A stretch of DNA of 64,000 nucleotides, taken from a virus. The translations under genes were made by a program, and so were the position numbers. The stretch covers positions 1 through 64,000 of IMG/VR virus record IMGVR_UViG_3300044678_003030. The stretch is one strand, 5' to 3'. Of the stretch, positions 825 through 62,613 are shown piece by piece. Position 1 is the first letter of the stretch. Every line of letters starts with the position of its first letter. Below the pieces are notes generated by a model that saw only the letters and a program-made list of their open reading frames with translations, ran no database searches and was not told the DNA's origin.

Positions 825-1299
825 GCAAGCCCATCTCGCTCTTGAGCTGTCGGTTCTGTACCTCCAATCCCTCGACTCGTCGTCGCAGGTGCTTGAGCTC
901 ATCGCGACGACGTAGATCATCTCGGATGTGTCGGGCGACGAGCAGGCCAGAGACGCACAGCTCACGCGCTCGATCCCAGCGAGAGCGCCAGTCGACGTAA
1001 GCGTCTCCTGACAGCTTGCCCTTGTAGAGCTTGGCGCTGCTGTCGATGTCGTCGAGTCGCTCTTCGTGGAGCCTGACTTGCAACTCAGCTTCATGGTGGT
1101 CCTTCGCCGTAGGAACAAACATCGAGTCGTCGAACGCGACGAACGAGTGGGGGAGACCCTCAGACTTGCAGAAGGTGTCGAGGCGGTGGATGACGGAGGC
1201 GAGAGACTCACCCGGGGTCACCCACACACGGATGCGGTTGGCGCCCTCACGGCACACGTCGGCGCTGCCGCGAACGAAGACGATGTCGAGGCCGTTCAC
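685..1299 (-). CDS. Hypothetical protein, up to 204 aa, C-terminus doubtful
   Basis: Not recognised. The start is the GTG inside the palindrome at 1295-1307, overlapping the TGA of the upstream gene (GTGA). Residues 1 to about 155 look like a real protein: a beta-rich first half, then a charged helical segment around DDLRRRDELKHLRRRVEGLE that could form a coiled coil. After about residue 155 the composition becomes Arg/Ala/Gly-rich and shadow-like, just where the 465-824 frame begins to look genuine. The natural product may therefore stop early or shift frame. Confidence 0.6.
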   Translation of the reverse strand: MNGLDIVFVRGSADVCREGANRIRVWVTPGESLASVIHRLDTFCKSEGLPHSFVAFDDSMFVPTAKDHHEAELQVRLHEERLDDIDSSAKLYKGKLSGDAYVDWRSRWDRARELCVSGLLVARHIRDDLRRRDELKHLRRRVEGLEVQNRQLKSEMGLRAARAARDGAPQRRVARAPEDVDALAPSVSLGDHGESDEGPPGDSP

Positions 1300-1307
1300 G
1301 GAGTGAA
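1295..1307. repeat. TTCAC-N3-GTGAA palindrome (centre GGA)
   Basis: Provides the TGA stop of the 1296-1481 gene and the GTG start of the 685-1299 gene. Confidence 0.9.
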
Positions 1308-1481
1308 ATCGTCCTTGGAGTCTTCCTCCTCGACGACCTCGCGCAGCGTCTTGCGGCAAACGCAACAGCGCTTGTGCGCCTCGTCGACGTACACGGTCTC
1401 CAATGAAGTCTCTGGTAGCGGGCACTTGAGGCAGTAGTAGGCACCCTTCTTGATCTTCCACCCGTAGTGGGACTTGTTCAT
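1296..1481 (-). CDS. Small zinc-ribbon protein, 61 aa
   Basis: Two CxxC pairs (YYCLKC and RCCVC) about 22 residues apart suggest one bound zinc, followed by an acidic C-terminal tail. The start ATG overlaps the TGA of the upstream gene (TGATG). The C-terminus DFTP is encoded by the palindrome at 1295-1307, whose TGA also serves as this gene's stop. Such small zinc ribbons are common in phage early operons; the partner is unknown. Confidence 0.7.
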   Translation of the reverse strand: MNKSHYGWKIKKGAYYCLKCPLPETSLETVYVDEAHKRCCVCRKTLREVVEEEDSKDDFTP

Positions 1482-1624
1482 CACATCACCCATCCTGCGA
1501 TGAACCCTGCCAGCAGGGACAGCGCCAGTGCGGTTGCGTAGATCAGAGGAGAGAACGATTCGTCGCGCCGTGGGCCCCGTCGATTGTCGATCTCGACAGG
1601 CGGCACGAAATCCCGCGTGGTCAT
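1481..1624 (-). CDS. Small C-terminally anchored membrane protein, 47 aa
   Basis: A polar, arginine-rich N-terminal half is followed by one hydrophobic span (LIYATALALSLLAGFIAGWV), predicting a single-pass protein with a cytoplasmic N-terminus. A strong AAGGAG ribosome site precedes the ATG, and ATGA and TGATG overlaps link it to both neighbours. Function unknown. Confidence 0.75.
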   Translation of the reverse strand: MTTRDFVPPVEIDNRRGPRRDESFSPLIYATALALSLLAGFIAGWVM

Positions 1625-2091
1625 CGCACGCTCCTTCCTGCGTACCGCCGAATCCATCCGACCTGCCGCATCGCTAGGGGATCGGGGTAGCATCCCGCGA
1701 AGGGCTGCTCGGGTCGGTCATGCCCGACCCCGTGGTGGTAGCGACCGAGCACGTCCGCCCACGGACGACCAGGGCAGCGCACGCGACGAATGAAGCGCAG
1801 GCTCTCCAGGGCGATGCCTGCGGCGCGTCGAATGGAGAGGCGCTGACACCCCTCGTAGTGATCACGGCGCTGACAGACCTCGGGGTGAAGGCTCACCCAA
1901 TGGGTCACGCCGAACGGGGGATAGGAGGCGACGTGGAACCAGTTCTCGCTCTTGGCGATGGTCGTGAGGGCCGCGCGCTCAACTGCGCTTTCCGTGACAG
2001 CGACGATGGCCTCTGCGTAGACGGTGCGCTCGGTGTGATTCCGCTCGCCGGCCATCGCCATCATCATGGCCAGTACCTGTGAGATATCCAT
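1621..2091 (-). CDS. Lysozyme/transglycosylase-like protein (tentative), 156 aa
   Basis: Start ATG overlaps the upstream TAA (TAATG) with AAGAAGG upstream. A helical first half contains TTIAKSENWF, resembling the helix that carries the catalytic glutamate in soluble lytic transglycosylases. Later, LGRYHHGVGH and a cysteine before YPDPLAMR resemble the end of small phage muramidase-type domains. No signal peptide is visible and it sits in an early-type operon, so a virion or lysis role is not obvious. Family assignment is tentative. Confidence 0.45.
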   Translation of the reverse strand: MDISQVLAMMMAMAGERNHTERTVYAEAIVAVTESAVERAALTTIAKSENWFHVASYPPFGVTHWVSLHPEVCQRRDHYEGCQRLSIRRAAGIALESLRFIRRVRCPGRPWADVLGRYHHGVGHDRPEQPFAGCYPDPLAMRQVGWIRRYAGRSVR

Positions 2092-2399: not shown

Positions 2400-2401
2400 G
2401 A

Positions 2402-2878: not shown

Positions 2879-2885
2879 GCCCACG

Positions 2886-2891
2886 AGCTTA
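2886..2891 (-). promoter_or_regulatory. Leaderless-type -10 element TAAGCT
   Basis: TAAGCT lies 7 nt before the ATG at 2878. The tandem 12-bp repeat at 2903-2926 sits roughly where a -35 region would be. Confidence 0.55.
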
Positions 2892-2902
2892 CGTCACGGG
2901 CC

Positions 2903-5218: not shown

Positions 5219-5574
5219 TGTGCATCCTTCTTCTCGTTGGCGGCGCGGAAGACGGCGACGAAGCCCTCGGGGTGGTCGCCGTTCTCGCGGTCAGACAGCA
5301 CGAAGACGTAGTCGGGGTGGACGTCGCGCCACACCGTGATCGCGGGGGAGCTACAACCATCACCGATCTCGACGCGGGCACCGATGAGGTAACCATCTCC
5401 GTCTTTGAGCTTCCACTCCTTCACGTGAAGCCACGTGAAGTCGAAGTTCACTTCACCATCAAGAGCATCAGCAAGCTGGCTCACGAGAGTTTTGCGGAAC
5501 GCCTCGATGGCGCTGTAGTGCGAGGAAATGCTCTCGATGAGCGTGGCCGTCATCCTTTGTTCGTAGGTGATCAC
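5215..5574 (-). CDS. Hypothetical protein, 119 aa
   Basis: Not recognised. An N-terminal helix is followed by alternating strands (DFTWLHVKEWKLKDG, GYLIGARVEIGD, ITVWRDVHPDYVFVL). Within it, at 5420-5429, lies TTCACGTGAA, the two palindrome half-sites with no spacer. Confidence 0.65.
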   Translation of the reverse strand: MITYEQRMTATLIESISSHYSAIEAFRKTLVSQLADALDGEVNFDFTWLHVKEWKLKDGDGYLIGARVEIGDGCSSPAITVWRDVHPDYVFVLSDRENGDHPEGFVAVFRAANEKKDAQ

Positions 5575-7930: not shown

Positions 7931-8231
7931 GAAGAGCTCACGTACGCACGCGACCTCCTCAACATAGTGTAGCGTAATGTATCTATAATATATTAGGTTT
8001 CCTGGACACGTATATATTGAGACCCTCAGAGCTGCTGAAATTCTGTAAAGGCTGCAAACCCCGTAGGGGCACCCTCCGGGTGATCCCGAACAAGGCGCGG
8101 CGCGGCGCCGCCCGGTTCGCGGCCTCGCGGTGTGTTTCGCTTGGATTCCCGGTGAATTCGCGCTGCCGGAGGTCGGTGGGAGATCGGCCCACCAATGCCG
8201 GGCTCCTCCGTGGAGGGAGTGCGCTCTGCTC
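7931..8231. other. Non-coding centre of the inverted duplication
   Basis: About 300 bp without a convincing gene. The left half is AT-rich (TATAATATATTAG near 7985); the right half is GC-rich with local hairpins CCCC-GTA-GGGG at 8059-8069 and CACCC-TCC-GGGTG at 8070-8082. Short frames on both strands are Arg/Pro/Ser-rich and have no ribosome site. Confidence 0.6.
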
Positions 8232-8613
8232 TGGACCCCCTATGTATTTGGAGGTCGTCAACCTGGATCGCAAAACTCTCGGATTTGCCTGAGTTACAGC
8301 GCAAAACGTGAAACTCGGCCTATAGTGACATTCTTGTCGAAGCCTTTCCTGGGTGTTTTCAGCCGGTTGCGCTGCAAAAAAAGATGGCCCTAATATATTT
8401 GGTATAAGTCTCTAATCAACGTTGAGCTTTCTACCTTGTTCTGCTGTGATTTCCTGCAACAACACCCTTCACAGGGTACCTATACTTCACGCGAAGGCTT
8501 CACCTTTATTTCGTTCGTTCACCTGCTTTTCAGGACGTTCCAGTGAACGATGAGAAATCGCCCAGTATAAAGCCTTCAACACAAGCTTTTCTCCCGTTAT
8601 ATCCGTTTCTCTG
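8232..8613. repeat. Right arm of the large inverted duplication
   Basis: Mirror image of 7550-7930, at an estimated 75-80% identity by eye, with blocks of 20-40 bp nearly identical. The leader hairpin is kept as ACCCT-TCAC-AGGGT, its only change being in the loop. Confidence 0.85.
8403..8408 (+). promoter_or_regulatory. Decayed mirror TATAAG promoter
   Basis: GGTATAAG is kept in the right arm and points outward (rightward), but 17 bp upstream the expected nnAAA is AAGAT. It would transcribe only the gene remnant at 8543 and then run antisense to the next gene, so it may be inactive. Confidence 0.4.
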
Positions 8614-8743
8614 TGTGCTGTTCCGCTGTGGCCCTCGTGCCTCGCCGCCCGACCCCCGAATTCGCGGGCTAACGACCTCCCACGTCATGCAGCGTCCACG
8701 GCGCTCACCTCCCCTACGCTGTGTGTCTTGCACCTACATGTAG
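8543..8743 (+). pseudogene. Remnant of a mirrored copy of the 556-aa gene start
   Basis: The GTG frame begins MNDEKSPSIKPSTQA, against MKDEKPLAIKPSWEA at the start of the leftward 556-aa protein. DNA similarity continues to about 8613 (including CGTTATAT and GTTTCT) and then stops. The remaining codons to 8743 look random. This is what is left after an inverted duplication of the operon start, not a working gene. Confidence 0.65.
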
Positions 8744-8794
8744 TAGACGCAGCTTTCCCATCCGTAGGCATCGGGAGCCTTCGGCGGCGTCTAG
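8614..8794. other. Non-coding stretch
   Basis: No supported gene, promoter or terminator between the end of the right arm and the stop codon of the 8795-9487 gene. Confidence 0.5.
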
Positions 8795-10163: not shown

Positions 10164-10639
10164 GTCAGAAGGTTTTCGCCCGGGTCGCTGGTTCGCTGGT
10201 GCAGGTTGGCGAGGTCTTCTCCTACGAGCAGACCGAGCACGTCGAACGGTTCAGCATTCGGCTCGACCTGATCCCTGTCGACGGGGTCCTCAGCATCGAG
10301 CTCCGCCACGAGGAAGCGTCTCACGCAGTCCTGCGGGTGCGGGACATCTTTCAGGGATCGTTCTACGCCAAGGCCGGGGATTCCGTCCCCAAGATCCCGG
10401 CCATCAAGGCGTACAGGGAGGTAACGGGGTGCGGCCTCGGCGAGGCCAAGGCGTGGATCGAGAACCACGCCCCCACCGAGCAGAAGGGTCTCGGCGCCTG
10501 GGGGCGGCCTGCCTGGGATTACGCGCTCTCCCCGGAGCTCGTGTCTTCTCTCAAGGAGCGCGCGCTCCTGAAGCCTCTCAGGGCGTGTACGTCGGAGACC
10601 GAGGGCGTCTTCCCGGCCTGGGAGGTCATCTTCTCCTGA
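10160..10639 (+). CDS. Protein with an L7/L12-like helix motif, 159 aa
   Basis: Start ATG overlaps the previous stop. A beta-rich N-terminal part (residues 1-70) is followed by PKIPAIKAYREVTGCGLGEA, which closely follows the KI-VIK-VR-ITGLGLKEAK core of the ribosomal protein L7/L12 C-terminal domain, the part that contacts translation factors. Whether it mimics L7/L12 or simply shares a small helical fold is not shown. A strong hairpin terminator follows directly. Confidence 0.65.
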   Translation: MSQKVFARVAGSLVQVGEVFSYEQTEHVERFSIRLDLIPVDGVLSIELRHEEASHAVLRVRDIFQGSFYAKAGDSVPKIPAIKAYREVTGCGLGEAKAWIENHAPTEQKGLGAWGRPAWDYALSPELVSSLKERALLKPLRACTSETEGVFPAWEVIFS

Positions 10640-10646
10640 CGCCCCT

Positions 10647-10689
10647 AGCAAACACCTACGGCGTCGGCGGCGCCGTAGGTGTTTGCTTT
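10647..10689 (+). terminator. Hairpin terminator with 17-bp perfect stem
   Basis: The 10647-10663 stem pairs exactly with 10671-10687 around a 7-nt loop, followed by TTT. It isolates the 9568-10639 set from the promoter at 10695. Confidence 0.8.
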
Positions 10690-10694
10690 GGCTC

Positions 10695-10723
10695 CGAAAC
10701 CCGCAGGGTCAGGGTGGTATAAG
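10695..10723 (+). promoter_or_regulatory. TATAAG-class promoter
   Basis: CGAAA, 18-bp spacer, TATAAG. Its start lies just after the previous terminator. Leader of about 85 nt to the ATG at 10814. Confidence 0.65.
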
Positions 10724-10758
10724 GAGATAGAGCGAGCGCATGACGCGCAACGCCTCCC

Positions 10759-10799
10759 GCACCCACTAATTGGTGCTTGCCCCCAGGGTGATGGGGGCA
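10759..10799 (+). promoter_or_regulatory. Two leader hairpins in front of the ribosome site
   Basis: GCACC/GGTGC at 10759-10776, then an 8-bp perfect stem TGCCCCCA/TGGGGGCA at 10778-10799, one base before the AGGAG at 10801. The placement suggests control of translation or mRNA stability. Confidence 0.6.
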
Positions 10800-10813
10800 C
10801 AGGAGTCATGATC

Positions 10814-11506
10814 ATGAACACGCCCAAGTCTGCCTATTACGCCTGCCTCGCCTTCGCTTCGAACCCCGCGCTCTCGTGGGACCGCGTCAGCGCGTTCGAC
10901 AACTTGCGCGCCGGCGCGCTCGCCCTCGCAGGAGGATCCTCGACCGCCTGGGGCGACGAGGATGTGTGCCTCGGGGAGGGTACCCGGGCCCGCAACGACG
11001 CCGAGCGCCAGGGCATCATTGATGCCTACCACGCCGCGAACGAACGGTTGATTGAGCTCCAGAACGAGCTCATTCACGCGGTCAACGCTGCCCCCTGGGG
11101 GCGTCAACCCGACGGCACCTTCATCACGGACAGCAAGTCCGGGGCTGAAGGGGGACGGCGCCGTGTCCTCCACGTCAACCGTCTCCCCGTTGCGGCCGTC
11201 TGCAATGGGTACAGGGTGAGCGTGCTCACGAAGGAGACCGCCACGAAGGTCCGGGACGCCGAGAAGGCGCGGACGAAGGAGGCGCAGTCCCAATACAACG
11301 CGTCGCGTCGTGAGGTCCTCACAGCGCTTCGGCGGGGTATCCGGCTGGAGCATCGAGACGGCCAGGAAGGCGGGGTGATCTATCCCCGCGTCGCCGGCAG
11401 GGCTGTCTCGGCCCGTGGGCTCATCGCCGCCCTGGCCGCCGAGGGCATCGATCTGAAGTTCGAGGGTGGTCTGGCGTTCGTCCCCGACTACCACGACGCG
11501 TACTGA
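10814..11506 (+). CDS. Hypothetical protein, 230 aa, single-gene unit
   Basis: Of two in-frame ATGs I take the second, which lies 8 nt after AGGAG; the first is only 2 nt away. Not recognised. A long central helix (IIDAYHAANERLIELQNELI) and a second (KVRDAEKARTKEAQSQYNAS) suggest an elongated or oligomeric protein. It has its own promoter, leader hairpins and a terminator-like hairpin, so it is expressed alone. Confidence 0.7.
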   Translation: MNTPKSAYYACLAFASNPALSWDRVSAFDNLRAGALALAGGSSTAWGDEDVCLGEGTRARNDAERQGIIDAYHAANERLIELQNELIHAVNAAPWGRQPDGTFITDSKSGAEGGRRRVLHVNRLPVAAVCNGYRVSVLTKETATKVRDAEKARTKEAQSQYNASRREVLTALRRGIRLEHRDGQEGGVIYPRVAGRAVSARGLIAALAAEGIDLKFEGGLAFVPDYHDAY

Positions 11507-11520
11507 CCTGACGACGGAGA

Positions 11521-11554
11521 CGACCCCCGACGGCCCCACAAGCCGTCGGGGTCG
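11521..11554 (+). terminator. Hairpin after 10814-11506 (weak T-run)
   Basis: A 13-bp stem with one bulged C, around a short loop; the following bases are CGCTTCGTTT rather than a clean T-tract. Confidence 0.55.
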
Positions 11555-11567
11555 CGCTTCGTTTGGC

Positions 11568-11580
11568 TTCACTCCGTGAA
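11568..11580. repeat. TTCAC-N3-GTGAA palindrome (centre TCC)
   Basis: Intergenic, between a terminator hairpin and the 11605 gene. Confidence 0.9.
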
Positions 11581-11591
11581 ATCGTCTGTGC

Positions 11592-11597
11592 TACCTC
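11592..11597 (+). promoter_or_regulatory. Possible leaderless -10, TACCTC
   Basis: Correctly placed 7 nt before the ATG at 11605 but ends in C instead of T. No Shine-Dalgarno is present. A palindrome lies 11 bp upstream. Confidence 0.35.
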
Positions 11598-11604
11598 TCT
11601 CTGT

Positions 11605-11928
11605 ATGGCACGTAACAGCAGCAAGAAGAACGACGGCAACGGCATCCCCAAGAAGCTCCTGAAGAACCTCCCGCACGGGTTCCTGGAGGAGGTTCAGTCC
11701 ATGGGCGTCTCGGTGCTCAAGGAGACGGTCGTACAGACCAGCGGCGCGATCGCTGAGACCGAGATCGCCAAGGCGCAGGACGAGAAGCTCACCGCCGCCA
11801 AGGAGAAGGTCAAGGACCTCTCCGAGGGCTACAACGAGGTCCTCAAGGCGCAGAAGGCCAAGCGCAACCTCGCGCTTCACTTCCTGGAGAGCCAAGGCCA
11901 GCTCCAGGGTGCGGACATCGGGGAATGA
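11605..11928 (+). CDS. Helical hypothetical protein, 107 aa
   Basis: Not recognised. Lysine-rich N-terminus, then one long helical region (IAETEIAKAQDEKLTAAKEK) with coiled-coil character. First gene of a rightward operon with ATGA overlap to the next. Confidence 0.65.
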   Translation: MARNSSKKNDGNGIPKKLLKNLPHGFLEEVQSMGVSVLKETVVQTSGAIAETEIAKAQDEKLTAAKEKVKDLSEGYNEVLKAQKAKRNLALHFLESQGQLQGADIGE

Positions 11929-12128
11929 TCACGATCTACATCGACGACGTGCCGTACACGGTCACGCGTACGGAGTCGTCTGCCCGTGACCTCCTCGCCA
12001 TGGCCCATGATGACGACGCGGACGAGTTCGACATCGTCCTGCTCGACGAAGGCGACTTCGAGGTCGCGTTCGACTGGACGCCGTATCAGGACGGTGATCG
12101 ATTCGTGACGAAGAAGAAGGAGTTCTGA
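11925..12128 (+). CDS. Small acidic protein, 67 aa
   Basis: Not recognised. Strongly acidic centre (AHDDDADEFDIVLLDEGDFE) and a basic last six residues. Acidic proteins of this size in phage operons are often inhibitors of host DNA-binding proteins, but nothing here proves that. Confidence 0.6.
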   Translation: MITIYIDDVPYTVTRTESSARDLLAMAHDDDADEFDIVLLDEGDFEVAFDWTPYQDGDRFVTKKKEF

Positions 12129-22548: not shown

Positions 22549-22815
22549 CTACTCGCCGACGACGCCGAGGACCTCATCGGCCTGGAAGATGACCAGGGTC
22601 TCCTCATCGACCTTGATCTCCAGGCCACCGTAACGGGGCACGAGCACGGTGTCGCCGACGCTCAGGTCCTTCACGTCGCGGCCGATGTTGACGACGTGAG
22701 CCTCCACGCTTCCGTTCTCCTCGACGGTCTCGGGGATGTAGAGCCCCCCGGGGGTCTGGGTCTGCTTGGGGGCGCGGCGGATGAGAACGCGATTGCCAGT
22801 GGGTCGGATGTTCAT
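22549..22815 (-). CDS. groES: Co-chaperonin GroES-like, 88 aa
   Basis: Begins MNIRPTGNRVLIRRA, with the mobile-loop region (KQTQTPGGLYIP), the VGDTVLVPRYGG strand and LVIFQADEVLGVVGE end typical of the 10-kDa chaperonin cap. It would pair with the host GroEL, as T4 gp31 does for capsid folding; no GroEL gene is in the window. A TACGGT sits 7 nt before the ATG without Shine-Dalgarno, so its mRNA is probably leaderless. Confidence 0.92.
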   Translation of the reverse strand: MNIRPTGNRVLIRRAPKQTQTPGGLYIPETVEENGSVEAHVVNIGRDVKDLSVGDTVLVPRYGGLEIKVDEETLVIFQADEVLGVVGE

Positions 22816-24348: not shown

Positions 24349-25092
24349 CTACTGGACTGAAGACGTCGGGATGACGACGCTTGGAACCACCAAGGCGACG
24401 ATGCTCACGTTCCCTTGGTAGACGACAACCACGGGCACCTCGTTCACGTTGTTCCAGCTACGGAGGATTGACACCAGCTTCGGCACGGGAGGGTCCGCCA
24501 TGATGATCAGCGGCTCAGGCATCTTCTCGATCCGGCGACAGACGGGGTCCATGTGGCGGATCAAGATGTTCCGTGGGAGAACCCCTGATGCGATGGGTAG
24601 CTGGTTGGACGTTCGGCAGTGCCGAACGAAGTCGTCTCCGACGAGCTCCTGAAACTTGGACGGGCAGAGCTCGTCGGTCACGTCGACGATGAAACCGGCG
24701 ATCGCGAGCGGCGCTAGGCCCTCATCGACGATCAGCTCGTTCCTGCTCGTGAGCACCATCTTCTTGTGCTGCTCGACGAGCTCGGCCCGGTTCGGCATGA
24801 CCTGGATCGTGGTCTTGCGTGACTTCGGGGCTGCGCTTCGCACCGCTTCCGAGGTGCGCTCGAAGAGGCACTCTTCGGGGTGTTCGTCGTCGGGGCCGAT
24901 GAAGCGGATGTCGATCGGGAAAGAGAACCGCTCCGCGAGGCGCTTGCGCACCTTGGACGGTGCGTTCTGGTCTGCCACGACGAACACGTAGCGCCCATAG
25001 GTAGTCGCTGTCTCCGCGTCGCGGTAGATGGCGAGCACTGCTGGGTGTGATTCGAACGCTGTGACTAGGTCACTGCTAGAGAACTCTGTCAC
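24349..25092 (-). CDS. Hypothetical protein, 247 aa
   Basis: Not recognised. N-terminal domain with ATTYGRYVFVVADQNAPSKV and a following helix; the C-terminus is very rich in valine (PVVVVYQGNVSIVALVVPSV), suggesting a buried beta-sheet. Overlaps the upstream helical gene as ATGA. Confidence 0.65.
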   Translation of the reverse strand: MTEFSSSDLVTAFESHPAVLAIYRDAETATTYGRYVFVVADQNAPSKVRKRLAERFSFPIDIRFIGPDDEHPEECLFERTSEAVRSAAPKSRKTTIQVMPNRAELVEQHKKMVLTSRNELIVDEGLAPLAIAGFIVDVTDELCPSKFQELVGDDFVRHCRTSNQLPIASGVLPRNILIRHMDPVCRRIEKMPEPLIIMADPPVPKLVSILRSWNNVNEVPVVVVYQGNVSIVALVVPSVVIPTSSVQ

Positions 25093-37757: not shown

Positions 37758-37770
37758 TTCACGCGGTGAA
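37758..37770. repeat. TTCAC-N3-GTGAA palindrome (centre GCG)
   Basis: Encodes the end and stop of the amidase and lies upstream of the 37747 -10 element. Confidence 0.9.
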
Positions 37771-38550
37771 GCCGAAGGCTCTGATGCCGTGTGCGTAGCC
37801 GCGTGCCTTGAGCGCTGCGACCGTCGCGGGACCAGGATCGCCATCGGCAGTCACCCCGAGCTCGCGCTGGCGCTCTCTCCAGATGGCGTCGGCGTCGGGC
37901 GAGAAGAAGTCGAACTTCTCGACGCCAACGGCTTCCAGGGCGAGCCACATCGCATCGCCAGGATCGCCGATCCCGCGCCCCTGATCACCCTGGTAGTGGC
38001 CGAAGACGCCGACAGGGCCCTGGTAGGCGTCGAGGTTCAGGCGCTTGCGCCCCACGCGGTAGGGCCAGTGCGTCTGGAACTGCACGCCGGTCTGACCGCA
38101 GAGCCACCGTACGAGCCGCGCGGTCACGTCGAGCTGCCCCTGGTAGATCGAGGCGTCGCGGCTGAACTGCACGATCTCGATGCCGATCGAGTCGAAGCTC
38201 ACGCCCGGCATGTGGTACGCCACTTCGGTGATGAGGTCGCACGTCTGGATCACCGAGCCGTCACGGTCGACGAGGAGGTGCGCGCCGGCCTGCCCAGCAT
38301 TGCCGGTCCAGTAGCGGACATTGTCCTCTGCTGCGTTACCAGGAGGACCAAACCCAGGTAGGATCACCTGAGGGCGCTGGTCCCTCCCGCCAGGAATGCC
38401 CCCTGTCGAGTGAATGATGATTCGACGGATTCGAGGCTTGGGTCGTGAGCGCCCATCGTTCCCCATCTTCAGTCGAATAGCGTTGTTGTCCCGCCAGTTC
38501 GACGTCACGATCCCAGGGACTTCCTTGGCGACACCATTGAGGATCAACAT
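37759..38550 (-). CDS. N-acetylmuramoyl-L-alanine amidase endolysin, 263 aa
   Basis: Amidase_2-type domain: IIIHSTGG (H47), AHLLVDRDGSV (H91), SIGIEIVQ (E125) and GVFGHYQGDQ (H185) with a following acidic loop, the zinc ligands and catalytic residues expected. The last 45 residues (from AIWRERQRELGVTADGDPG to RGYAHG) resemble a C-terminal peptidoglycan-binding domain. No signal peptide, so a holin is needed. I start at MLILNGVAKE, 30 bp inside the longer frame, behind GAGGTG. The terminal GFTA and stop come from a palindrome. Confidence 0.9.
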   Translation of the reverse strand: MLILNGVAKEVPGIVTSNWRDNNAIRLKMGNDGRSRPKPRIRRIIIHSTGGIPGGRDQRPQVILPGFGPPGNAAEDNVRYWTGNAGQAGAHLLVDRDGSVIQTCDLITEVAYHMPGVSFDSIGIEIVQFSRDASIYQGQLDVTARLVRWLCGQTGVQFQTHWPYRVGRKRLNLDAYQGPVGVFGHYQGDQGRGIGDPGDAMWLALEAVGVEKFDFFSPDADAIWRERQRELGVTADGDPGPATVAALKARGYAHGIRAFGFTA

Positions 38551-53390: not shown

Positions 53391-53736
53391 TCGGTACCCC
53401 CATCGACTGCGGTTGATCGTCCTTGGTGAGGTGGTGATAGAGCGCATACGCCACAGGACCCACCACGGCCCCTGTGTACCCGCGTGTCCCACCTTCAGGC
53501 GTACTCATGGAGTTCCCGACGATACCGCCCATCGCCCCGGCCAGGATCGACTCCATGTCCTTCCCTTGAGGGGCGATGACTGAGCCGATACCGGCGCCCG
53601 CCAGCGCGGGGCCGTGGATCTTGAGCTGCTGACCGAACGCCTCCGGGGAGAACGCGGCTGACTTGCTCAGCTCGTCGAAGGCAGCTCCCTTCAGCCCGGC
53701 GTGAAGCCGGACCAGCTCGGCGTCCGTGTGGCGCAT
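53374..53736 (-). CDS. Glycine-zipper protein, 120 aa
   Basis: MRHTDAELVRLHAGLKGAAF opens a helical start; two glycine-rich hydrophobic helices follow (GPALAGAGIGSVIAPQG, SILAGAMGGIVGNSM). LSKSAAFS resembles the K-x-A motif. TGATG coupling with the upstream gene. Confidence 0.6.
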   Translation of the reverse strand: MRHTDAELVRLHAGLKGAAFDELSKSAAFSPEAFGQQLKIHGPALAGAGIGSVIAPQGKDMESILAGAMGGIVGNSMSTPEGGTRGYTGAVVGPVAYALYHHLTKDDQPQSMGVPNGYIG

Positions 53737-54296
53737 CAGCGGCCGATCGCCTGCTTGAGCGATTCGTAGCCGTTGAGGTAGTGCCCGGCGCCGAGCTCCT
53801 GGTACTGGCGCAGCTCGTTGTTCGCAGCCGTCTTGTCCTGCCCGCTCGCGGCGCGCTGCTCGTTGTAGCCACGCTCGACCTCGCGCAGGAAGCCCGCAGG
53901 GTCGGCCTGCGCCAGCTTGGCGAGCTCGATCGTACGGGGGTCGATGCCAGCGGCGGCTTCCTTCGCCATCTTCTCGGCGGCTTCGCCCGCCGACGTGAAG
54001 GTCGCCAGGGCCTGCTCCGCGAACGCAGCCCCGGCGAGCTTGCCTCGGCGGAACGCGCGCTCGTCGTTGGCCGCCTCGATCGCCTGGGCCTCCTTGGTCA
54101 GCACGTCGCTGACGGTGGTCGCGCTCGCCTCCTTGACGGACCCGAGCCCCGACACGACTTCGCGCATCGACTGGTCGAGCGTCGAGGCTGCCGGAGCGGA
54201 GGGCGCAGGCGAGGCGGTACCGGGCTGCCCGGCCGTCTTCGCCTCGGCGGTCTTCGTGGTCTGGTTCAGGTTTCCGATCAGGCTCTTGATCTGCAT
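53736..54296 (-). CDS. Internal head protein candidate with K-T-A motifs, 186 aa
   Basis: TTKTAEAKTAG in residues 13-23 and QDKTAANN near the C-terminus, plus KEAQ, KEAAAG and KLAQ in between. Otherwise helical and alanine-rich. Situated directly after the protease gene in transcription order, where scaffold or internal proteins lie. Confidence 0.6.
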   Translation of the reverse strand: MQIKSLIGNLNQTTKTAEAKTAGQPGTASPAPSAPAASTLDQSMREVVSGLGSVKEASATTVSDVLTKEAQAIEAANDERAFRRGKLAGAAFAEQALATFTSAGEAAEKMAKEAAAGIDPRTIELAKLAQADPAGFLREVERGYNEQRAASGQDKTAANNELRQYQELGAGHYLNGYESLKQAIGR

Positions 54297-54313
54297 TACG
54301 TTCCTCTTGGAGG

Positions 54314-56182
54314 TCAGGACAGGAGTAGCGCACCAAGCGCGCCGCTGAAGTCGTCGAGCGATAGGGTAGGCGGTTCGGTCGAGTCTTCTGCCTGCTTCTC
54401 CCAGCGCTCGAAGTGATCATCGGCGAGATCTGAGATGCGGGTGCGGCGTCGCATCTCTGCGGCCATGTTCCCGCTGTGGCATTGCGCCGGCAGCCGCTCG
54501 GCGTAGTCCGAGGCAAACTTGGCCAGGACGGAGGCCAGCTTGAACTCGGTTCCCCCGGAGACGCGGACGCCTTGGTCGGTCAGGTACGCCGGGTTCCGGT
54601 ACGGGCGAGCGGCGCGTAGAACGTGAGGGGCGGTCACTGCGCCAAGTCCGATTCCACCGAGCGTAGAAGCCACGGGGTTCACGCCGCCGAGCCCGTAGAG
54701 CCCGAGCCCGTAGAGGGCTGACAACCCGACCGTCGTACCTACGAGACCCTTCATGTCTTCGTGGTTGGCGCGCATGGCGGCGCCACGGGTCGTCGTGTAG
54801 CGGTGCCCCGTATTCGGGTCCGTCATCGATAGGAGATCGGTCCTCGGCGGTTCTTGCGCAGAGGTCAGATAGCCGGGTCCGAGAGGAGGGTCGACCGTCT
54901 GGTTCACGCGCTGCTTGAGCCAGTCGTCCATCGAGGCGAGCTTGGCTTCGACCTCTGCGGACGGGCGCCTCGGGTCGATGGTCACATAGGCCCCGAGCTC
55001 TTCGGCGAGCTTCGGGTATCGCCCCATGATCGAGAGCACGGACGGCTGGAGCGTGACCATCCTGTCGAGCAAACGAGCAGAAGGGATCACGCCTGCGGTC
55101 TTGCGCAGGAAGACGCGCGCGAACTCGCTCGCCGTGAGAGACGCGTTCTTGGACGCGAGCGTCGAGAGCAGGGCGTCGAACGGCAAGCCAGCGAGGTCAG
55201 CGACTTGCGCCTCAGTCGCGCTAACCGGAGCCTTGAGGGGCACGGTCTGCCGGTACTGGCGGATCGCCTGGATGTCGGGCGCTGTACGGACAGCCTCGAT
55301 GTCTCCCGCGATCTCCTTCTGGATGTCGGAGACCTTGTTTACGGCCGCTCGCTTGGCTTCGTAGTCGGCAACCTTTTCACCGAGTGAAGCTCCTGTACGG
55401 ATCACGTACGCATCCTCGGCGACCTTCTTGAGCATGAACCCTGTGCGGTCTGCCGGGCGCCACACGAAGGAGATGTCGAAGAAGCTCGGTGATGGGTTGA
55501 GCGCGCAGTTCCTGATCCCCGTCGCCGGATCGATCTGGCGCATCGCCGAGCGGAGGTGCTCGCAGTAGTCCTTGCGGGTCGGGGCTCGGTGTCCGCACTT
55601 GGCGCACACGTCCCAACGGACGTTGCAGCCCATCGACACAGCCGGGAATTCACCTGCGTTGATCTTGCCGACGAGCTCAGGGTCGAGGCGATTCCTGATC
55701 TCCAGCAGGAGCTCGCTCCGGTGCATGGAGCTGTTCCAGAACGCCTTCTCGATTCGACCGAGCGACTTGCGGGGGTCCTTGTTGACGTGGTGCTTGTAGA
55801 TCCCGCCACGTGTCTCGAAGGTCTTGTAGTGCTGGGTGACAACTTCGTCCGGGGAGATCCAACCTTCGAGGTTGCGCGGTTGACACCCTGGATGGCCACA
55901 GGTTGCCCGCTCTCCCACGCGGTAGGTGCGCTCCGGGAAGGCGTCGCCGTTGCGGTTGTCATCGTAGTACTCGTAGGCGCCGAACGCGTTGACGAGGACG
56001 ATCGTGCATCCTTCGCGAGGGGTGACCGTCTTGATGTAGTCGAACGCCTCAGACGCGGTCTTTTCGGACGAACCCGGACGTTCGGTGTACCAACGGCCCT
56101 TCTCAGAACGAGCGATGACGCGCAGCGTCGGTTCGCCGGTCTTGGGGAAGTAGTCGTCGAGCTCGATGATTTTGGTGAACAT
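54314..56182 (-). CDS. Prohead protease with long C-terminal extension, 622 aa
   Basis: Residues ~40-215 match the head maturation proteases of large myoviruses: NAFGAYEYYDDNRNGDAF, then YKHHVNKDPRKSLGRIEK (H131/H132) and FPAVSMGCNVRWDVCAKCG (S183 likely nucleophile, with a zinc-like C193/C196 and C207). The remaining ~400 residues are an extension with helices, a glycine-rich hydrophobic part near 500 and K-T-A motifs at residues 41 and ~372. Such proteases remove scaffold and propeptides during head maturation; the extension may be scaffold or delivered with DNA. Confidence 0.75.
   Translation of the reverse strand: MFTKIIELDDYFPKTGEPTLRVIARSEKGRWYTERPGSSEKTASEAFDYIKTVTPREGCTIVLVNAFGAYEYYDDNRNGDAFPERTYRVGERATCGHPGCQPRNLEGWISPDEVVTQHYKTFETRGGIYKHHVNKDPRKSLGRIEKAFWNSSMHRSELLLEIRNRLDPELVGKINAGEFPAVSMGCNVRWDVCAKCGHRAPTRKDYCEHLRSAMRQIDPATGIRNCALNPSPSFFDISFVWRPADRTGFMLKKVAEDAYVIRTGASLGEKVADYEAKRAAVNKVSDIQKEIAGDIEAVRTAPDIQAIRQYRQTVPLKAPVSATEAQVADLAGLPFDALLSTLASKNASLTASEFARVFLRKTAGVIPSARLLDRMVTLQPSVLSIMGRYPKLAEELGAYVTIDPRRPSAEVEAKLASMDDWLKQRVNQTVDPPLGPGYLTSAQEPPRTDLLSMTDPNTGHRYTTTRGAAMRANHEDMKGLVGTTVGLSALYGLGLYGLGGVNPVASTLGGIGLGAVTAPHVLRAARPYRNPAYLTDQGVRVSGGTEFKLASVLAKFASDYAERLPAQCHSGNMAAEMRRRTRISDLADDHFERWEKQAEDSTEPPTLSLDDFSGALGALLLS
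55376..55388. repeat. TTCAC-N3-GTGAA palindrome (centre CGA)
   Basis: Inside the prohead protease gene, in the extension. Confidence 0.9.
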
Positions 56183-57606
56183 CAGAAGACCGGCGCCGAG
56201 TACGCCTTGACGCGGTCAGAGAGCTGGTCGACGTCTTGCGCAGTGAGCTGCCCCTTGCCCCATCCGAGCATGTCGAGCGGTAGGTCCTTGTTCCCGGCGT
56301 TGAAGTGGTCCATCAGGCGTTGACGGTTGCCAGGGTCGCTGAAGATCTTGCTTGCGGGGGACAAGCTGCCAAGGTCTTCAGCCGCCCGGCTGAGCAGGTC
56401 GTACTGCCGCTGTGCCTGCCGTGTCTTGGACAGGGCCTGAGCCGCCTCCAGCGTCCGCTGGTCCATGAGCTCCTTGACGACTTGCCCACCGACCGCGCCG
56501 AGGGGCATACCCAGGAGCCCACCCATCGCAGCGCCGCGCAGCCGGTTGTCCTTGTCGTCCCACGCGCCGATGCCCGCGCCTCCGACCGCACCGATTCCCG
56601 CTCCGATGACACGGGGGTCGGTGTAGAAAGAGGCGGGGATGCCTGCGGTCTTCGGCTGAGCTTGTGCCGTCTTGAGCGGCCACATCTCGCGAAAGCTCTC
56701 CAGGTCTTCATCAGAGACCCGATCTCGGGGGTCACGGAGTGACGCCGCGAGGCGGCGATAACGTTCTGCGTCTCCCCCTTCCAGGCCGCCGAAGTAGCTG
56801 TCTTGGATATCGGGATGCCGCAACATCACGGTTTCGGGGTCGATCGTTTCATGGAGCGTTGCCCCTGGAAGATGTGCTTGAAGCTGCGCGAGGTCGAACG
56901 GAACGGGGGGCGCGGGCGGCGGCGCGGGCGGCGCCTTCTTGCCCCTGAACCAGTCGAGCATCCCTGCGGTCTTCTCCGCCTCGCGGGTGAGGTAGCAGAG
57001 GTCGTCGATCGCTGCCTCGGCCGAGAGCGTGGCGAGCTTCTCGGCCTCTTGCTCGGTGACCTCTCCCTTCGCGCGCAGATCGGCGATCTTGGCGTCGACG
57101 AGGTAGTTGCTCGCGAAGCTGCGCGCAGCCTCTTCTCGCTCTTCACGGGACGAAGCGGTCTTGGTGCCGGTGCGCTCGGTCTCGCTCCAAACACGCAGCG
57201 CTTCACCAGCAAGCCATTGCACGGGGTCGTTTGTACGCGCTGCGGCGATCTTCATCCGCTCCCACAGGCCCCGCTGCTCAGCGGCGACGGTCGTGCGGTA
57301 GCCCACTGAGGCGGTCTTCTCCTGTGCGCCCAGAAGAACTTTCACGGCGTGAAAGTCTGGCGTGAAGCTCTCGGCTTCCGCGAGCTTCGAGTCACCGCAC
57401 AGTGACCGCATGTCGTCGAACCCGGCTGCGAGCGCAGCCTCCTTGGTGATGTCTCCACTGATTGTCTCGCCGAGGTAGCGAGCCACGCTCGGGAGGTCCC
57501 ATGAGTCCGGGGCGTTGACGTCTCCCGTGTGACGAAGGTACTCCGTCGCGAACTTGGGGAAGCCGAAGACACGAATGGCCTCTCCGGCCTTGCGGTAGGG
57601 GTGCAT
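56182..57606 (-). CDS. Internal head protein candidate with five K-T-A motifs, 474 aa
   Basis: QEKTASVG, GTKTASSR, AEKTAGML, LKTAQ and PKTAGIP punctuate the chain, mostly at borders between helical blocks. A proline linker (KKAPPAPPPAPPVPFD) follows the third. The C-terminal third has glycine-zipper helices (VIGAGIGAVGGAGIGAW, MGGLLGMPLGAVGG). A palindrome is read as FHAVK. Probably enclosed in the head or injected. Confidence 0.6.
   Translation of the reverse strand: MHPYRKAGEAIRVFGFPKFATEYLRHTGDVNAPDSWDLPSVARYLGETISGDITKEAALAAGFDDMRSLCGDSKLAEAESFTPDFHAVKVLLGAQEKTASVGYRTTVAAEQRGLWERMKIAAARTNDPVQWLAGEALRVWSETERTGTKTASSREEREEAARSFASNYLVDAKIADLRAKGEVTEQEAEKLATLSAEAAIDDLCYLTREAEKTAGMLDWFRGKKAPPAPPPAPPVPFDLAQLQAHLPGATLHETIDPETVMLRHPDIQDSYFGGLEGGDAERYRRLAASLRDPRDRVSDEDLESFREMWPLKTAQAQPKTAGIPASFYTDPRVIGAGIGAVGGAGIGAWDDKDNRLRGAAMGGLLGMPLGAVGGQVVKELMDQRTLEAAQALSKTRQAQRQYDLLSRAAEDLGSLSPASKIFSDPGNRQRLMDHFNAGNKDLPLDMLGWGKGQLTAQDVDQLSDRVKAYSAPVF
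57341..57353. repeat. TTCAC-N3-GTGAA palindrome (centre GGC)
   Basis: Inside the 474-aa gene, read as FHAVK. Confidence 0.9.
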
Positions 57607-58232
57607 TACTGGCCTCCGATTTCGCCGCGCCCTTGGCGCACAGTCTTCTCGATGTCGGCGAGGGACTTGGCGGTTGCGAAGTCGAGCTGGCCGCCGATCG
57701 TGGCTCCCTGGTTGAGGAAGTTCTGAGTGACCAGCGGGTCCATCGCGAGCGAGGGGGCGTAGGTCTTGAACGACCCGTACAGGCGCCGAATCATCTCAGG
57801 GTTCTCTCGGTGGATTCTGGCGAGCTCAGGGTCCATACCCAGGACCTCGTCAAACACCTTGCGCTGCTTGGGCTCGGTGTAGAGCTTCTTCTTGAGCACC
57901 GACTGAAGAGCGTTGAACGGGCGCTTGATGCCGATGTCGGCGACCGCATTGGCGAGCGCGCCTGTTGCGACGTCCTGGAACTTCGGAGCAGCGGCAGCAA
58001 ACGTGAGAGGAGAACCCTCGCTCACGTCCGCCAGCTTGCGGGTTGCAAACGCCTCGTGGCTCTGCTTGACGGTCAACTTGGGCAGCGCCGCTGTCATGTC
58101 GTGTCGCCTTGCGTTTGAGAGATCGAGCATTCGAGCCTCTTGCTCATCTTGCACCTTGCCGCTGCGCACGACCGCCGCAGCGGCTGTCGCAGCCAGCGCT
58201 GCGGGCACGAGTCGGTTGGTGGTCGTTGCCAT
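57606..58232 (-). CDS. Hypothetical head-region protein, 208 aa
   Basis: Starts MATTTNRLVPAALAATAAAA, a hydrophobic N-terminal helix without a clear signal-peptide cleavage site; the rest is soluble and helical. No K-T-A. TGATG coupling with the upstream gene. Confidence 0.6.
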   Translation of the reverse strand: MATTTNRLVPAALAATAAAAVVRSGKVQDEQEARMLDLSNARRHDMTAALPKLTVKQSHEAFATRKLADVSEGSPLTFAAAAPKFQDVATGALANAVADIGIKRPFNALQSVLKKKLYTEPKQRKVFDEVLGMDPELARIHRENPEMIRRLYGSFKTYAPSLAMDPLVTQNFLNQGATIGGQLDFATAKSLADIEKTVRQGRGEIGGQ

Positions 58233-59083
58233 CAGGACCTGCACCACACATCGAACTCTTGCTTGAGCTTGTCACGCTCGGCGCAGAGCGACTCGTAGTG
58301 GCTTCGACCCTCTTCGTGCTCGACACGCGCCTTGGTCGCGACCTTGAGCAGAGAGGTCATCGTATTCGGCTTGCCGTCGGGGATTCGCTCGATGAGCGCT
58401 GCGACTTTTTCCTGCGGCAGATCAATCGCGCTGTGGCACGCCCGAGTGAGGGCGACGTTGAGGTCAGGGAGGGAGTCCCCGCCGAGCACCGCGAGCGCGT
58501 TCTTGCAGAAGCCGTCGAGGTCGCGGTTCAACGGCCTGAGGTGGAAGGAGACGCGGTCGACAGCATCGGTCCAGCGCTGTTCGAGCGAGCCGAGCTTGAT
58601 CTTGAGCTCGTGAGCAGCCTTCTCGGCCTTGTGGTAGCGGATGTCGAGCGGGATCTCTGCGGGGATGTAGCGAGCGGCGCGACGCGCGTCCTCTTCGTAG
58701 GACGCGGTCTTGATCGACGCCGACACGACCACATCTTCACGCAGCCGCGCCATCTCGTCTGGCAGGTCTGGATAGGAGTGGGAGTCCGACGCGGTCTTGG
58801 TCGCGGCGTCGTCGAAGAGCCGCCCGATGACGACCACTTCATCGGCGACAGGGAACGCAACGTTCTTGTCGCCGCCTTGAATCGACGCGAACTTCGACTC
58901 GAAGGTGTGCACGTTCACGGCCCGGCAGAGCCGGCGAACTTGCTCCTCGTTGAGGCTTTCGTCACGAGCGGTCTTGGTGACCAGCTCATTGAGGTCTGCG
59001 CCGTTCTGCCCTTGCCCGGCTTCGTAGGCCGAAGCGAGCTCGGCAGCCTTCGCATCGAACAGCGAGTTCGTCCACGTTGCCAT
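58232..59083 (-). CDS. Helical head-region protein with K-T-A motifs, 283 aa
   Basis: VTKTARDE, ATKTASDS and SIKTASYE lie in the first 130 residues, with KVATKA near the end. Otherwise helical (AHELKIKLGSLEQRWTDAVD). A TAGGCT lies 8 nt before the ATG, suggesting an internal promoter in the head gene block. Confidence 0.6.
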   Translation of the reverse strand: MATWTNSLFDAKAAELASAYEAGQGQNGADLNELVTKTARDESLNEEQVRRLCRAVNVHTFESKFASIQGGDKNVAFPVADEVVVIGRLFDDAATKTASDSHSYPDLPDEMARLREDVVVSASIKTASYEEDARRAARYIPAEIPLDIRYHKAEKAAHELKIKLGSLEQRWTDAVDRVSFHLRPLNRDLDGFCKNALAVLGGDSLPDLNVALTRACHSAIDLPQEKVAALIERIPDGKPNTMTSLLKVATKARVEHEEGRSHYESLCAERDKLKQEFDVWCRS

Positions 59084-59091
59084 ACGAGCAA

Positions 59092-59097
59092 AGCCTA
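59092..59097 (-). promoter_or_regulatory. Leaderless-type -10 element TAGGCT
   Basis: Eight bases before the ATG at 59083. Confidence 0.5.
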
Positions 59098-59799
59098 GTC
59101 CTTGAGACCGGCGATCTCGTTGATGTTGACGCTGGCCTGCTCGGGCGTCTTTGTCTCGTCGACGAGGTGCAAGGCCAGTTTGATCGCGTGCGCAGCGTTG
59201 TCGCCATGGCTCGCGCTCTTCTCGTTCACGAGGGCGGCGGCGCGCAATAGCTCGGGGGCGAGCCGCAATGCGGCTTGTGCCTTGGTGGTTTCAATGTCCA
59301 GCCCTCGGTTGTCGAGGAAGCGGACGTAGAGGTCACCGAGGACAGCGCGCATGACCTCTTTGGGGTCAACAGGCTTGCGGTCGCCCACGCGAAACTTGTC
59401 CGCGAGGAATGTGGGTCCTTGTTGCGTAGCGCTGAGGTAGTACTGCCTCTGGTCATCAGTGCAGTTGACTGATCGTGCGTACGCGTAGACGTCGAGCGCG
59501 TGCCGGAACACGGAGACGTCAAAGAAGAGGTGCCGATAAACATCCGTCACGACTTCCGGTAGGTCCAGGGCGTCACGCAGGACCGCGTTGCTCGCCTTGC
59601 CCAGGAGCAGCGCATCGACGATGTGCCGGTACTCTGGCGATACGTAGATGAGGTAGGCGTCCTCGATGTGAGCGATCAGCGACGTGTCGCCGGCCGTTTT
59701 CACGAGGTGAAAAAGGGCGCTTTCCCTGGGATCGGTGCTCTCACATACGGGTGAGGAGAGCACCGATTGGGCGCGATGATCAGGCGATCGCCGGGGCAT
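59095..59799 (-). CDS. Helical head-region protein, 234 aa
   Basis: The first ~28 residues are irregular, then ALFHLVKTAGDTS (palindrome and K-T-A side by side) opens an all-helical protein. The true start could lie later. Follows the 914-aa gene by four bases. Confidence 0.6.
   Translation of the reverse strand: MPRRSPDHRAQSVLSSPVCESTDPRESALFHLVKTAGDTSLIAHIEDAYLIYVSPEYRHIVDALLLGKASNAVLRDALDLPEVVTDVYRHLFFDVSVFRHALDVYAYARSVNCTDDQRQYYLSATQQGPTFLADKFRVGDRKPVDPKEVMRAVLGDLYVRFLDNRGLDIETTKAQAALRLAPELLRAAALVNEKSASHGDNAAHAIKLALHLVDETKTPEQASVNINEIAGLKD
59699..59711. repeat. TTCAC-N3-GTGAA palindrome (centre GAG)
   Basis: Inside the 234-aa gene, read as FHLVK immediately followed by TAG of a K-T-A-G motif. 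Confidence 0.9.
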
Positions 59800-59803
59800 C
59801 GGC

Positions 59804-62548
<2,745 letters not shown>

Positions 62549-62565
62549 TGCTCCTGATGGGCGAA

Positions 62566-62599
62566 CGCCCGGTTCTCCCAAGGATAGGGAGACCGGGCG
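62566..62599. other. Strong intergenic stem-loop in the head gene block
   Basis: CGCCCGGTTCTCCC pairs with GGGAGACCGGGCG (one bulge) around AAGGATA. There is no T-tract on the transcribed (minus) strand, so it is more likely a processing or stability element, or an attenuator, than a simple terminator. Confidence 0.65.
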
Positions 62600-62600
62600 T

Positions 62601-62613
62601 TTCACGCCGTGAA
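62601..62613. repeat. TTCAC-N3-GTGAA palindrome (centre GCC)
   Basis: Intergenic, beside the stem-loop at 62566-62599. Confidence 0.9.

What the first reader, a model, noticed from the sequence alone, without database searches (positions are those of the whole stretch)
1295..62613. A 13-bp palindrome TTCAC-N3-GTGAA occurs 30 times, about every 2.1 kb
Seen directly: 30 perfect copies starting at 1295, 3627, 3712, 6602, 9492, 11568, 13225, 15803, 18198, 20719, 22530, 24336, 25959, 27846, 29278, 33246, 34595, 35224, 37758, 41415, 43612, 45909, 49539, 51061, 52726, 53239, 55376, 57341, 59699 and 62601. Ten fixed bases should occur about once per megabase. Spacing is fairly even (most gaps 1.3-3 kb, none above 4 kb), on both gene strands, half within genes. 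The three central bases vary freely. The half-site equals the inner half of the ParB site parS (TTTCAC/GTGAAA), but with three bases inserted; a zero-spacer copy, TTCACGTGAA, is at 5420. Known parallels are stoperators of mycobacteriophage L5, parS clusters and DNA-uptake sequences. The even spread favours a DNA-organising, segregation, packaging or genome-wide silencing protein. No obvious binding protein is in the window.
Basis: partly seen in the sequence, partly recalled or inferred. Interest (0 to 1): 0.92.

Follow-up and report, generated by a model that had tools for sequence, protein, structure and literature searches.

The report
Evenly spaced ParB-docking sites across phage
This phage carries the same short mirror-image DNA sequence about every 2.3 kb along its genome, and comparison with its relatives indicates that these are docking sites for the phage's own ParB-type clamp protein, which probably coats or organises the whole viral genome; this could also explain repeats of unknown function described in other phages.

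Summary
In detail: 30 perfect TTCAC-N3-GTGAA copies in the window, 40 in the whole 93,956-bp virus record (0.06 expected), far more evenly spaced than chance, with almost no other spacers or one-mismatch copies. No ParA was found. Comparison supports the pairing of protein and site. All 11 fully read relatives with a ParB have a dispersed palindrome as their most over-represented one: TTCAC-N3-GTGAA (39 and 18 copies), TTTAC-N3-GTAAA (5 to 21 copies) or TAC variants. About 24 relatives without a detected ParB have only background counts. Unrelated ParB phages show similar arrays with other half-sites, as does the Corndog group, whose 17-bp TGTTCGG-N3-CCGAACA repeat is of unknown function and which encodes a ParB-like protein. 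One recognition-helix residue tracks the variable half-site base. Site positions turn over between relatives while sequence and spacing persist, which fits selection for regular coverage. Best explanation: ParA-less ParB clamps load at many parS-like sites and coat or organise the phage genome. ParB binding is strongly inferred; the biological purpose is not shown.

The parts
1295..1307 (.). site 1 TTCACGGAGTGAA
3627..3639 (.). site 2 TTCACGCGGTGAA
3712..3724 (.). site 3 TTCACGGCGTGAA
6602..6614 (.). site 4 TTCACCCCGTGAA
9492..9504 (.). site 5 TTCACCTCGTGAA
11568..11580 (.). site 6 TTCACTCCGTGAA
13225..13237 (.). site 7 TTCACGGCGTGAA
15803..15815 (.). site 8 TTCACGCGGTGAA
18198..18210 (.). site 9 TTCACGCAGTGAA
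20719..20731 (.). site 10 TTCACGCGGTGAA
22530..22542 (.). site 11 TTCACGCCGTGAA
24336..24348 (.). site 12 TTCACTGGGTGAA
25959..25971 (.). site 13 TTCACGCCGTGAA
27846..27858 (.). site 14 TTCACTGGGTGAA
29278..29290 (.). site 15 TTCACGGAGTGAA
33246..33258 (.). site 16 TTCACGGCGTGAA
34595..34607 (.). site 17 TTCACGGCGTGAA
35224..35236 (.). site 18 TTCACCGGGTGAA
37758..37770 (.). site 19 TTCACGCGGTGAA
41415..41427 (.). site 20 TTCACTGCGTGAA
43612..43624 (.). site 21 TTCACGGCGTGAA
45909..45921 (.). site 22 TTCACTCAGTGAA
51061..51073 (.). site 24 TTCACTCCGTGAA
52726..52738 (.). site 25 TTCACTCGGTGAA
53239..53251 (.). site 26 TTCACCGCGTGAA
55376..55388 (.). site 27 TTCACCGAGTGAA
57341..57353 (.). site 28 TTCACGGCGTGAA
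59699..59711 (.). site 29 TTCACGAGGTGAA
62601..62613 (.). site 30 TTCACGCCGTGAA. Outside the window the record holds 10 more sites (65334, 68167, 71564, 74270, 76504, 79428, 81052, 83124, 86120, 91074) and the ParB gene at 79585-80784 +

Best explanation
The 13-bp palindrome (fuller consensus tTTCAC-BSV-GTGAAa) is the nucleation site of the phage's own ParB-family protein, encoded at 79585-80784 of the same record, outside the window. Each half is the TTTCAC half of bacterial parS, with the two halves moved 3 bp apart. There is no detectable ParA. By analogy with ParB, Noc and KorB, a dimer loads at each site with CTP, closes into a clamp and slides onto the flanking DNA. About 40 loading sites every 2.3 kb would then spread ParB over the whole phage genome and mark it, compact it or keep it apart from host DNA during replication or packaging, instead of marking one centromere. 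Shown here: the array, its regularity, the ParB gene and its family, and the co-occurrence of array and ParB in relatives. Strongly inferred: that this ParB binds these sites. Inferred from known families only: CTP clamping and spreading. Most speculative: the biological purpose.
For: 1) Gene 84 is a ParB: HTH_ParB 6.6e-11, PHROG ParB-like partition 4e-11, Spo0J 5.5e-8, Noc and KorB in the PDB. A cousin's model matches ParB-nucleotide, Noc and KorB structures, E down to 1e-10, although the model is of modest confidence (pLDDT 68). 2) In the phage's own lineage 27 of 42 relatives hit HTH_ParB. All 11 ParB-positive ones read in full have a dispersed palindrome as the most over-represented one: TTCAC-N3-GTGAA 39x and 18x, TTTAC-N3-GTAAA 21x, 17x, 17x, 6x, 6x, 5x, TACG-N-CGTA 12x and 24x, TACGC-GCGTA 23x. 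24 relatives, 23 of them with no ParB found, have 9 matches to TTYACNNNGTRAA in total. 3) Regular spacing recurs: P<0.006 in G000, G092, G094, G112, G123, G093 and G030. 4) The ParB residue at position 196 in the recognition helix is Gly in 7 of 7 TTTAC phages and Ala/Ser in 4 of 4 phages with the C (or mixed) half-site; it is one of only two columns with that clean split. 5) At the place of Caulobacter ParB R173, which contacts parS guanine 1 (PMC7383237), this ParB has Ser195 by alignment, and the site has no preference at that base. 6) Coding-region sites mostly do not sit at homologous positions in collinear relatives, so number and spacing, not location, are maintained. 7) Flanking letters do not covary as base pairs, against an RNA hairpin.
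Against: No binding was measured. Some ParB-positive relatives show no array in what was searched (G111, G117, G107, G124), although other half-sites or low density could hide one. Other ParB phages (G028, G031, Schnabeltier, Maja and others) have no dispersed palindrome. Most fully read relatives were chosen after their 20-kb locus had hinted at a palindrome (G095 had not; G093's hint was a different one), so frequencies are not unbiased. The residue-base link rests on 11 related proteins, and 28 columns separate the classes with disjoint letters. The record is probably a fragment, so a ParA elsewhere in the genome is not excluded. Noncoding enrichment would also fit regulation. The GERR glutamate needed for CTPase activity in canonical ParB is Arg here (KorB has Ala and still hydrolyses CTP, PMC11790492), so clamp dynamics may differ.
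Confidence: 0.75

Rival explanations
1. KorB- or stoperator-like global repressor: ParB bound at the sites silences phage genes by blocking or roadblocking RNA polymerase, setting timing or latency.
For: Sites are enriched in noncoding DNA (20 of 40, P 4e-9) and many lie within tens of bases of a start codon. KorB, a ParB relative, represses from a distance of up to 1.5 kb as a sliding clamp (PMC11790492). One site lies 157 bp upstream of parB.
Against: 15 of 40 sites are inside genes, up to 2.4 kb from either end. Spacing is even beyond what gene layout gives. Coding sites do not follow orthologous genes. Sites are symmetric, not oriented. No integrase was found and the phage has its own RNA polymerase. 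Noncoding DNA is also simply where a site costs least.
Confidence: 0.25
2. Packaging, ejection or virion-DNA condensation: an evenly spaced ParB scaffold packs or spaces the DNA inside or on the way into the capsid.
For: Genome-wide even spacing.
Against: ParB is syntenic with helicase, sigma factor and replication genes, not with head genes. Density varies from one per 2.3 kb to one per 12 kb or more between relatives.
Confidence: 0.1
3. The sites are bound by another phage or host DNA-binding protein, and ParB co-occurs only because both belong to the same lineage.
For: ParB presence and the array could both be clade traits; many columns differ between site classes.
Against: Arrays with the same general build occur in unrelated ParB phages with different half-sites (G030, G080, G082, G090, Firecracker). 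The half-site is that of parS. The best separating column lies in the ParB recognition helix. Relatives of the same lineage without a detected ParB lack the array.
Confidence: 0.08
4. RNA-level element: a 5-bp stem with a 3-base loop acting as a processing or protein-binding hairpin in transcripts.
For: A palindrome can form a hairpin in RNA from either strand (sequence itself).
Against: Half-sites are invariant, without compensatory variants (other letter orders occur 0 or 1 times). Flank and centre positions pair no more often than shuffled. A 5-bp stem is weak.
Confidence: 0.02
5. Restriction-modification target, recombination site or chance composition effect.
For: Bipartite palindromes are typical of some type II restriction sites (own knowledge).
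Against: Phages avoid rather than accumulate such sites. Counts are about 600 times expectation while permuted and re-spaced controls are at background. Half-site changes among relatives are symmetric.
Confidence: 0.02

Closest known systems
17-bp repeats TGTTCGG-N3-CCGAACA of Cluster O mycobacteriophages (Corndog, Firecracker; PMC4351075)
   Same: Over 30 invariant palindromes with a 3-bp spacer, many intergenic and about a third in genes, mostly no promoter link. I recounted 35-36 in Firecracker, which encodes a ParB-like protein gp94 with a ParB_N match.
   Different: Different half-site; AT-rich centre; denser to the right and not evenly spaced. [quoted passage not shown] no ParB pairing was proposed.
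KorB and its OB operators on plasmid RK2 (PMC11790492)
   Same: ParB-family CTPase with several dispersed palindromic sites; non-Glu residue in the GxRR motif; VSQ in the recognition helix of the KorB-like relative read here (L048).
   Different: OB is TTTAGC-S-GCTAAA with a 1-bp centre; KorB works with KorA and represses promoters, and the plasmid has a ParA; fewer sites, tied to promoters (partly own knowledge).
Chromosomal ParB-parS and Noc-NBS
   Same: Half-site TTTCAC/GTGAAA shared with parS; Noc is a ParA-independent ParB paralogue with dispersed sites (PMC7383237 and own knowledge).
   Different: parS and NBS have no spacer, parS clusters near the origin; here a 3-bp spacer and an even spread over the whole genome.
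Stoperators of mycobacteriophage L5 (Cluster A)
   Same: Tens of dispersed short sites in a phage genome.
   Different: Asymmetric and oriented with transcription (as described in PMC4351075), bound by an immunity repressor (own knowledge); here symmetric, with ParB and no sign of lysogeny.
Partition systems of plasmid prophages (P1, N15)
   Same: Phage-encoded ParB.
   Different: Need ParA and one or a few centromere sites (own knowledge); no ParA here.

Membership tests
ParB protein family | ParB N-terminal CTPase fold with GxRR and ENxxR motifs | tested here: met
   GRRR and ENLDR present; phmmer alignment to Spo0J/Noc spans them. PF02195 itself does not reach threshold in gene 84; the G030 relative folds as ParB.
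ParB protein family | ParB-type HTH DNA-binding domain | tested here: met
   PF17762 at 6.6e-11, above the curated cut-off
ParB protein family | CTP binding and hydrolysis, clamp closing | not testable with these tools
   Needs biochemistry; the catalytic Glu of GERR is Arg here
ParABS partition system | ParA ATPase gene | tested here: not met
   No ParA-type Walker motif in the 94-kb record; PF13614 absent from it and 43 other ParB records; the record may be incomplete
ParABS partition system | 16-bp parS TGTTTCACGTGAAACA, clustered at one locus | tested here: not met
   0 copies of canonical parS; sites have a 3-bp spacer and are spread over the whole record
KorB/OB regulation | TTTAGC-N-GCTAAA operators at promoters with KorA partner | tested here: not met
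   0 OB sites; KorA not searched; promoter link not shown
Cluster A stoperators | Asymmetric sites oriented with transcription | tested here: not met
   Sites are perfect palindromes
Cluster O type repeats | More than 30 dispersed palindromes with 3-bp spacer in a phage with a ParB-like gene | tested here: met
   40 sites, ParB gene; Firecracker compared directly
Cluster O type repeats | Half-site TGTTCGG | tested here: not met
   Half-site is TTTCAC

The most novel reading that the evidence does not exclude
A ParA-less ParB-CTPase clamp that loads at many regularly interspersed palindromes and coats the entire viral genome is a widespread phage genome-organising system. It has evolved many half-site specificities on a shared scaffold (halves often ending AC...GT, usually with a 3-bp spacer) and explains the Corndog repeats.
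Probability: 0.55. Interest if true: 0.9.

Novelty: new variant of a known kind. Interest (0 to 1): 0.83.

Why it matters
Many phages encode orphan ParB-like proteins whose role is unknown, and the Corndog repeats have had no explanation since 2015. This work joins the two: it predicts the protein, its cognate site and which residue and base matter, so both questions become testable by gel shift, ChIP-seq and parB deletion in a cultured phage such as Firecracker. If coating is confirmed, it would be a viral counterpart of chromosome organisation based on evenly spread loading sites rather than one centromere, and a natural data set for how ParB specificity evolves.

Tried and rejected
Direct searches with the single ParB or RNA polymerase protein found no relatives in viral contigs and none by DNA; aligned, conserved stretches were needed. 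The first set of RNA polymerase relatives (33-40% identity) lacked ParB and array, which for a time looked like an isolated case. RNA families and tRNAs: none. Mu-type transposase as a clue to lifestyle: no hits, but the control also failed. Hairpin model: no covariation. parS without spacer and KorB OB sites: absent. Corndog's own record is not in the collection, so Firecracker was used.

Full report
WHAT WAS CHECKED. The window is bases 1-64000 of a 93,956-bp IMG/VR virus record. All 30 copies of TTCAC-N3-GTGAA are there, one coordinate off by one; the record holds 40. An unbiased scan of all 5- and 6-base half-sites with spacers 0-7 puts this palindrome first (Poisson P about 8e-97). Other spacers, permuted half-sites and one-mismatch versions are at or near background, so sites are all-or-none. 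Mean spacing is 2.3 kb with CV 0.40; none of 20,000 random layouts was as even, and none of 10,000 layouts that keep the intergenic/intragenic split. In genes the motif never sits in frame 0, where it would create a TGA stop; noncoding DNA is favoured. The logo is tTTCAC-BSV-GTGAAa.

THE BINDING PROTEIN. No binding protein is in the window, but gene 84 at 79585-80784 of the same record is a 399-aa ParB-family protein: HTH_ParB 6.6e-11, PHROG ParB-like partition families, and alignment over both the nucleotide-binding and the DNA-binding part of Spo0J, Noc and KorB. The phage also encodes a beta/beta'-type RNA polymerase in two pieces, a sigma factor, DNA polymerase and SNF2 helicase. There is no ParA-type Walker motif and no PF13614 hit.

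FIRST COMPARISONS. Distant RNA polymerase relatives, including phages Arash and Vibrio D69 (33-40% identity), have neither HTH_ParB (0 of 29 records) nor, in the stretches fetched, the array. ParB homology searches in viral contigs led to unrelated phages with arrays of their own. G030 has GTTTAC-N3-GTAAAC (9 exact plus 1), evenly spread over 102 kb, and it is again the top palindrome of the whole record. G080 has GCGCAC-N3-GTGCGC, G082 CGAAC-N3-GTTCG, G090 GCGAAC-N3-GTTCGC, G051 and G053 TGACG-N3-CGTCA. The cultured phage VarioGold has a spacer-free 16-bp version. Many other ParB phages have no such array. ParB-less control loci never passed P = 1e-6; one ParB-less whole genome reached 2e-9 through a local cluster, not a dispersed array.

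DECISIVE COMPARISON. Using the RNA polymerase catalytic region, 80 closer relatives were found. Of 42 records searched, 27 hit HTH_ParB. All 11 ParB-positive records that were read in full have a dispersed palindrome as their most over-represented one: TTCAC-N3-GTGAA in G092 (39) and G094 (18); TTTAC-N3-GTAAA in G100 (21), G101 (17), G123 (17), G099 (6), G110 (6) and G115 (5, weak); TACG-N-CGTA in G093 (12) and G095 (24); spacer-changed TACGC-GCGTA in G112 (23). Spacing is significantly even in most. G103 and G114 add 7 and 9 TTYAC-type sites. A set of 24 related records with no HTH_ParB hit (4.0 Mb) holds only 9 matches to TTYACNNNGTRAA; in one of these, G097, a lineage-specific model did find a diverged ParB, and its site, if any, is unknown. 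Several ParB-positive records (G111, G117, G107, G124) show no TTYAC array and remain unresolved.

MOLECULAR LINK. Aligning the ParBs, column 196 in the recognition helix is Gly in all 7 TTTAC phages and Ala or Ser in all 4 phages with TTCAC or mixed sites. Of 28 columns with disjoint residues only two have an invariant residue in the T class. This is suggestive, not proof, because the proteins are related. In Caulobacter, ParB R173 contacts parS guanine 1 (PMC7383237). The equivalent here by alignment is Ser195, and the equivalent base is unconserved in the array.

TURNOVER. G092 and G094 are collinear with this phage at 37-39% median protein identity, and the ParB gene keeps its place between helicase and sigma factor. 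Yet coding-region sites mostly do not fall at homologous positions. Sequence, number and regularity are kept; locations are not. That is the pattern expected if even coverage is selected.

MECHANISM. Shown: array, ParB, co-occurrence, regularity, turnover. Inferred: ParB binds the sites (about 0.9), loads with CTP and spreads as in KorB, Noc and ParB. Proposed: coating serves to organise, mark or separate the replicating genome (about 0.5), with KorB-like silencing the main rival (about 0.25). The GxRR motif of array phages often lacks the catalytic Glu (R, F, Y, H or A; Q in Firecracker), as in KorB (PMC11790492); this was noticed after the fact and G080, G082 and others keep the Glu.

KNOWN OR NEW. 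Cluster O mycobacteriophages carry a 17-bp palindrome with a 3-bp spacer, more than 30 copies, function unknown; the authors judged the ParB-like protein unlikely to act in genome stability (PMC4351075). Firecracker was rescanned here: 35-36 sites and a ParB_N protein gp94. A 2025 survey of the ParB fold covers phages; the word 'dispersed' does not occur in it and the passages read do not mention such sites (PMC12704722). Searches of the paper library found no link of phage ParB to dispersed palindromes, but most subscription papers and preprints are not held. Hence: a new variant of a known kind.

LIMITS. Virus records may be fragments, so absence claims are soft. Most fully read relatives had already hinted at a palindrome in the fetched 20-kb locus. 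Gene calls are my own. No experiment was possible.

Noticed in passing
record 68890-73962 (-) and 65353-67155 (-), beyond the window: The phage encodes a multi-subunit-type RNA polymerase in two proteins (1690 aa with beta and part of beta', and 600 aa with a further part), with a weak inorganic pyrophosphatase-like match (PF18823) inside the large one.
   Followed up: partly
window 53736-64000 (genes 67-74): A short KTA[S/A/G/E] peptide recurs in many proteins of the structural-gene block (for example KTAS 7 times against 0.45 expected), perhaps a maturation-protease cleavage motif.
   Followed up: partly
window 22549-22815 (-): Protein that reads like a GroES-type co-chaperonin (by eye, not tested).
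   Followed up: no
window 35232-35699 (+) and 37759-38550 (-): Thymidine kinase and an amidase-type endolysin (PHROGs).
   Followed up: partly
L429-L433 (G112) and L323 (G113): Relatives with a spacer-changed array TACGC-GCGTA (23 copies in G112), suggesting that spacing between half-sites also evolves.
   Followed up: partly
L263 (VarioGold), L264 (Aval): Cultured phages with integrase and ParB and a few dispersed spacer-free 16-bp palindromes of parS-like build (GTGCAgACGTcTGCAC in VarioGold).
   Followed up: partly
L266 (Aphanizomenon phage Yong-DA): The record carries replication, ParA and ParB genes and sugar-metabolism genes but no annotated phage structural genes, so it looks like a plasmid; it has 5 dispersed copies of a GTTCAGACGTCTGAAC-type palindrome.
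   Followed up: partly
G064 31422-32188, G068 8108-8753, G074 10250-12087, G084 24824-24948: ParB phages of another type (long C-terminal part with cysteines) have 2-4 clustered palindromes within about 10 kb of parB instead of a dispersed array.
   Followed up: no
L120 5575-6682 (G029): A second, clustered palindrome GTAGGCG-N3-CGCCTAC, four copies within 1.1 kb.
   Followed up: no
L450, L451 (G097:C1:166898-167986): Diverged ParB-like protein (449-aa frame) in a close relative that lacks the TTYAC sites; its cognate site is unknown.
   Followed up: no
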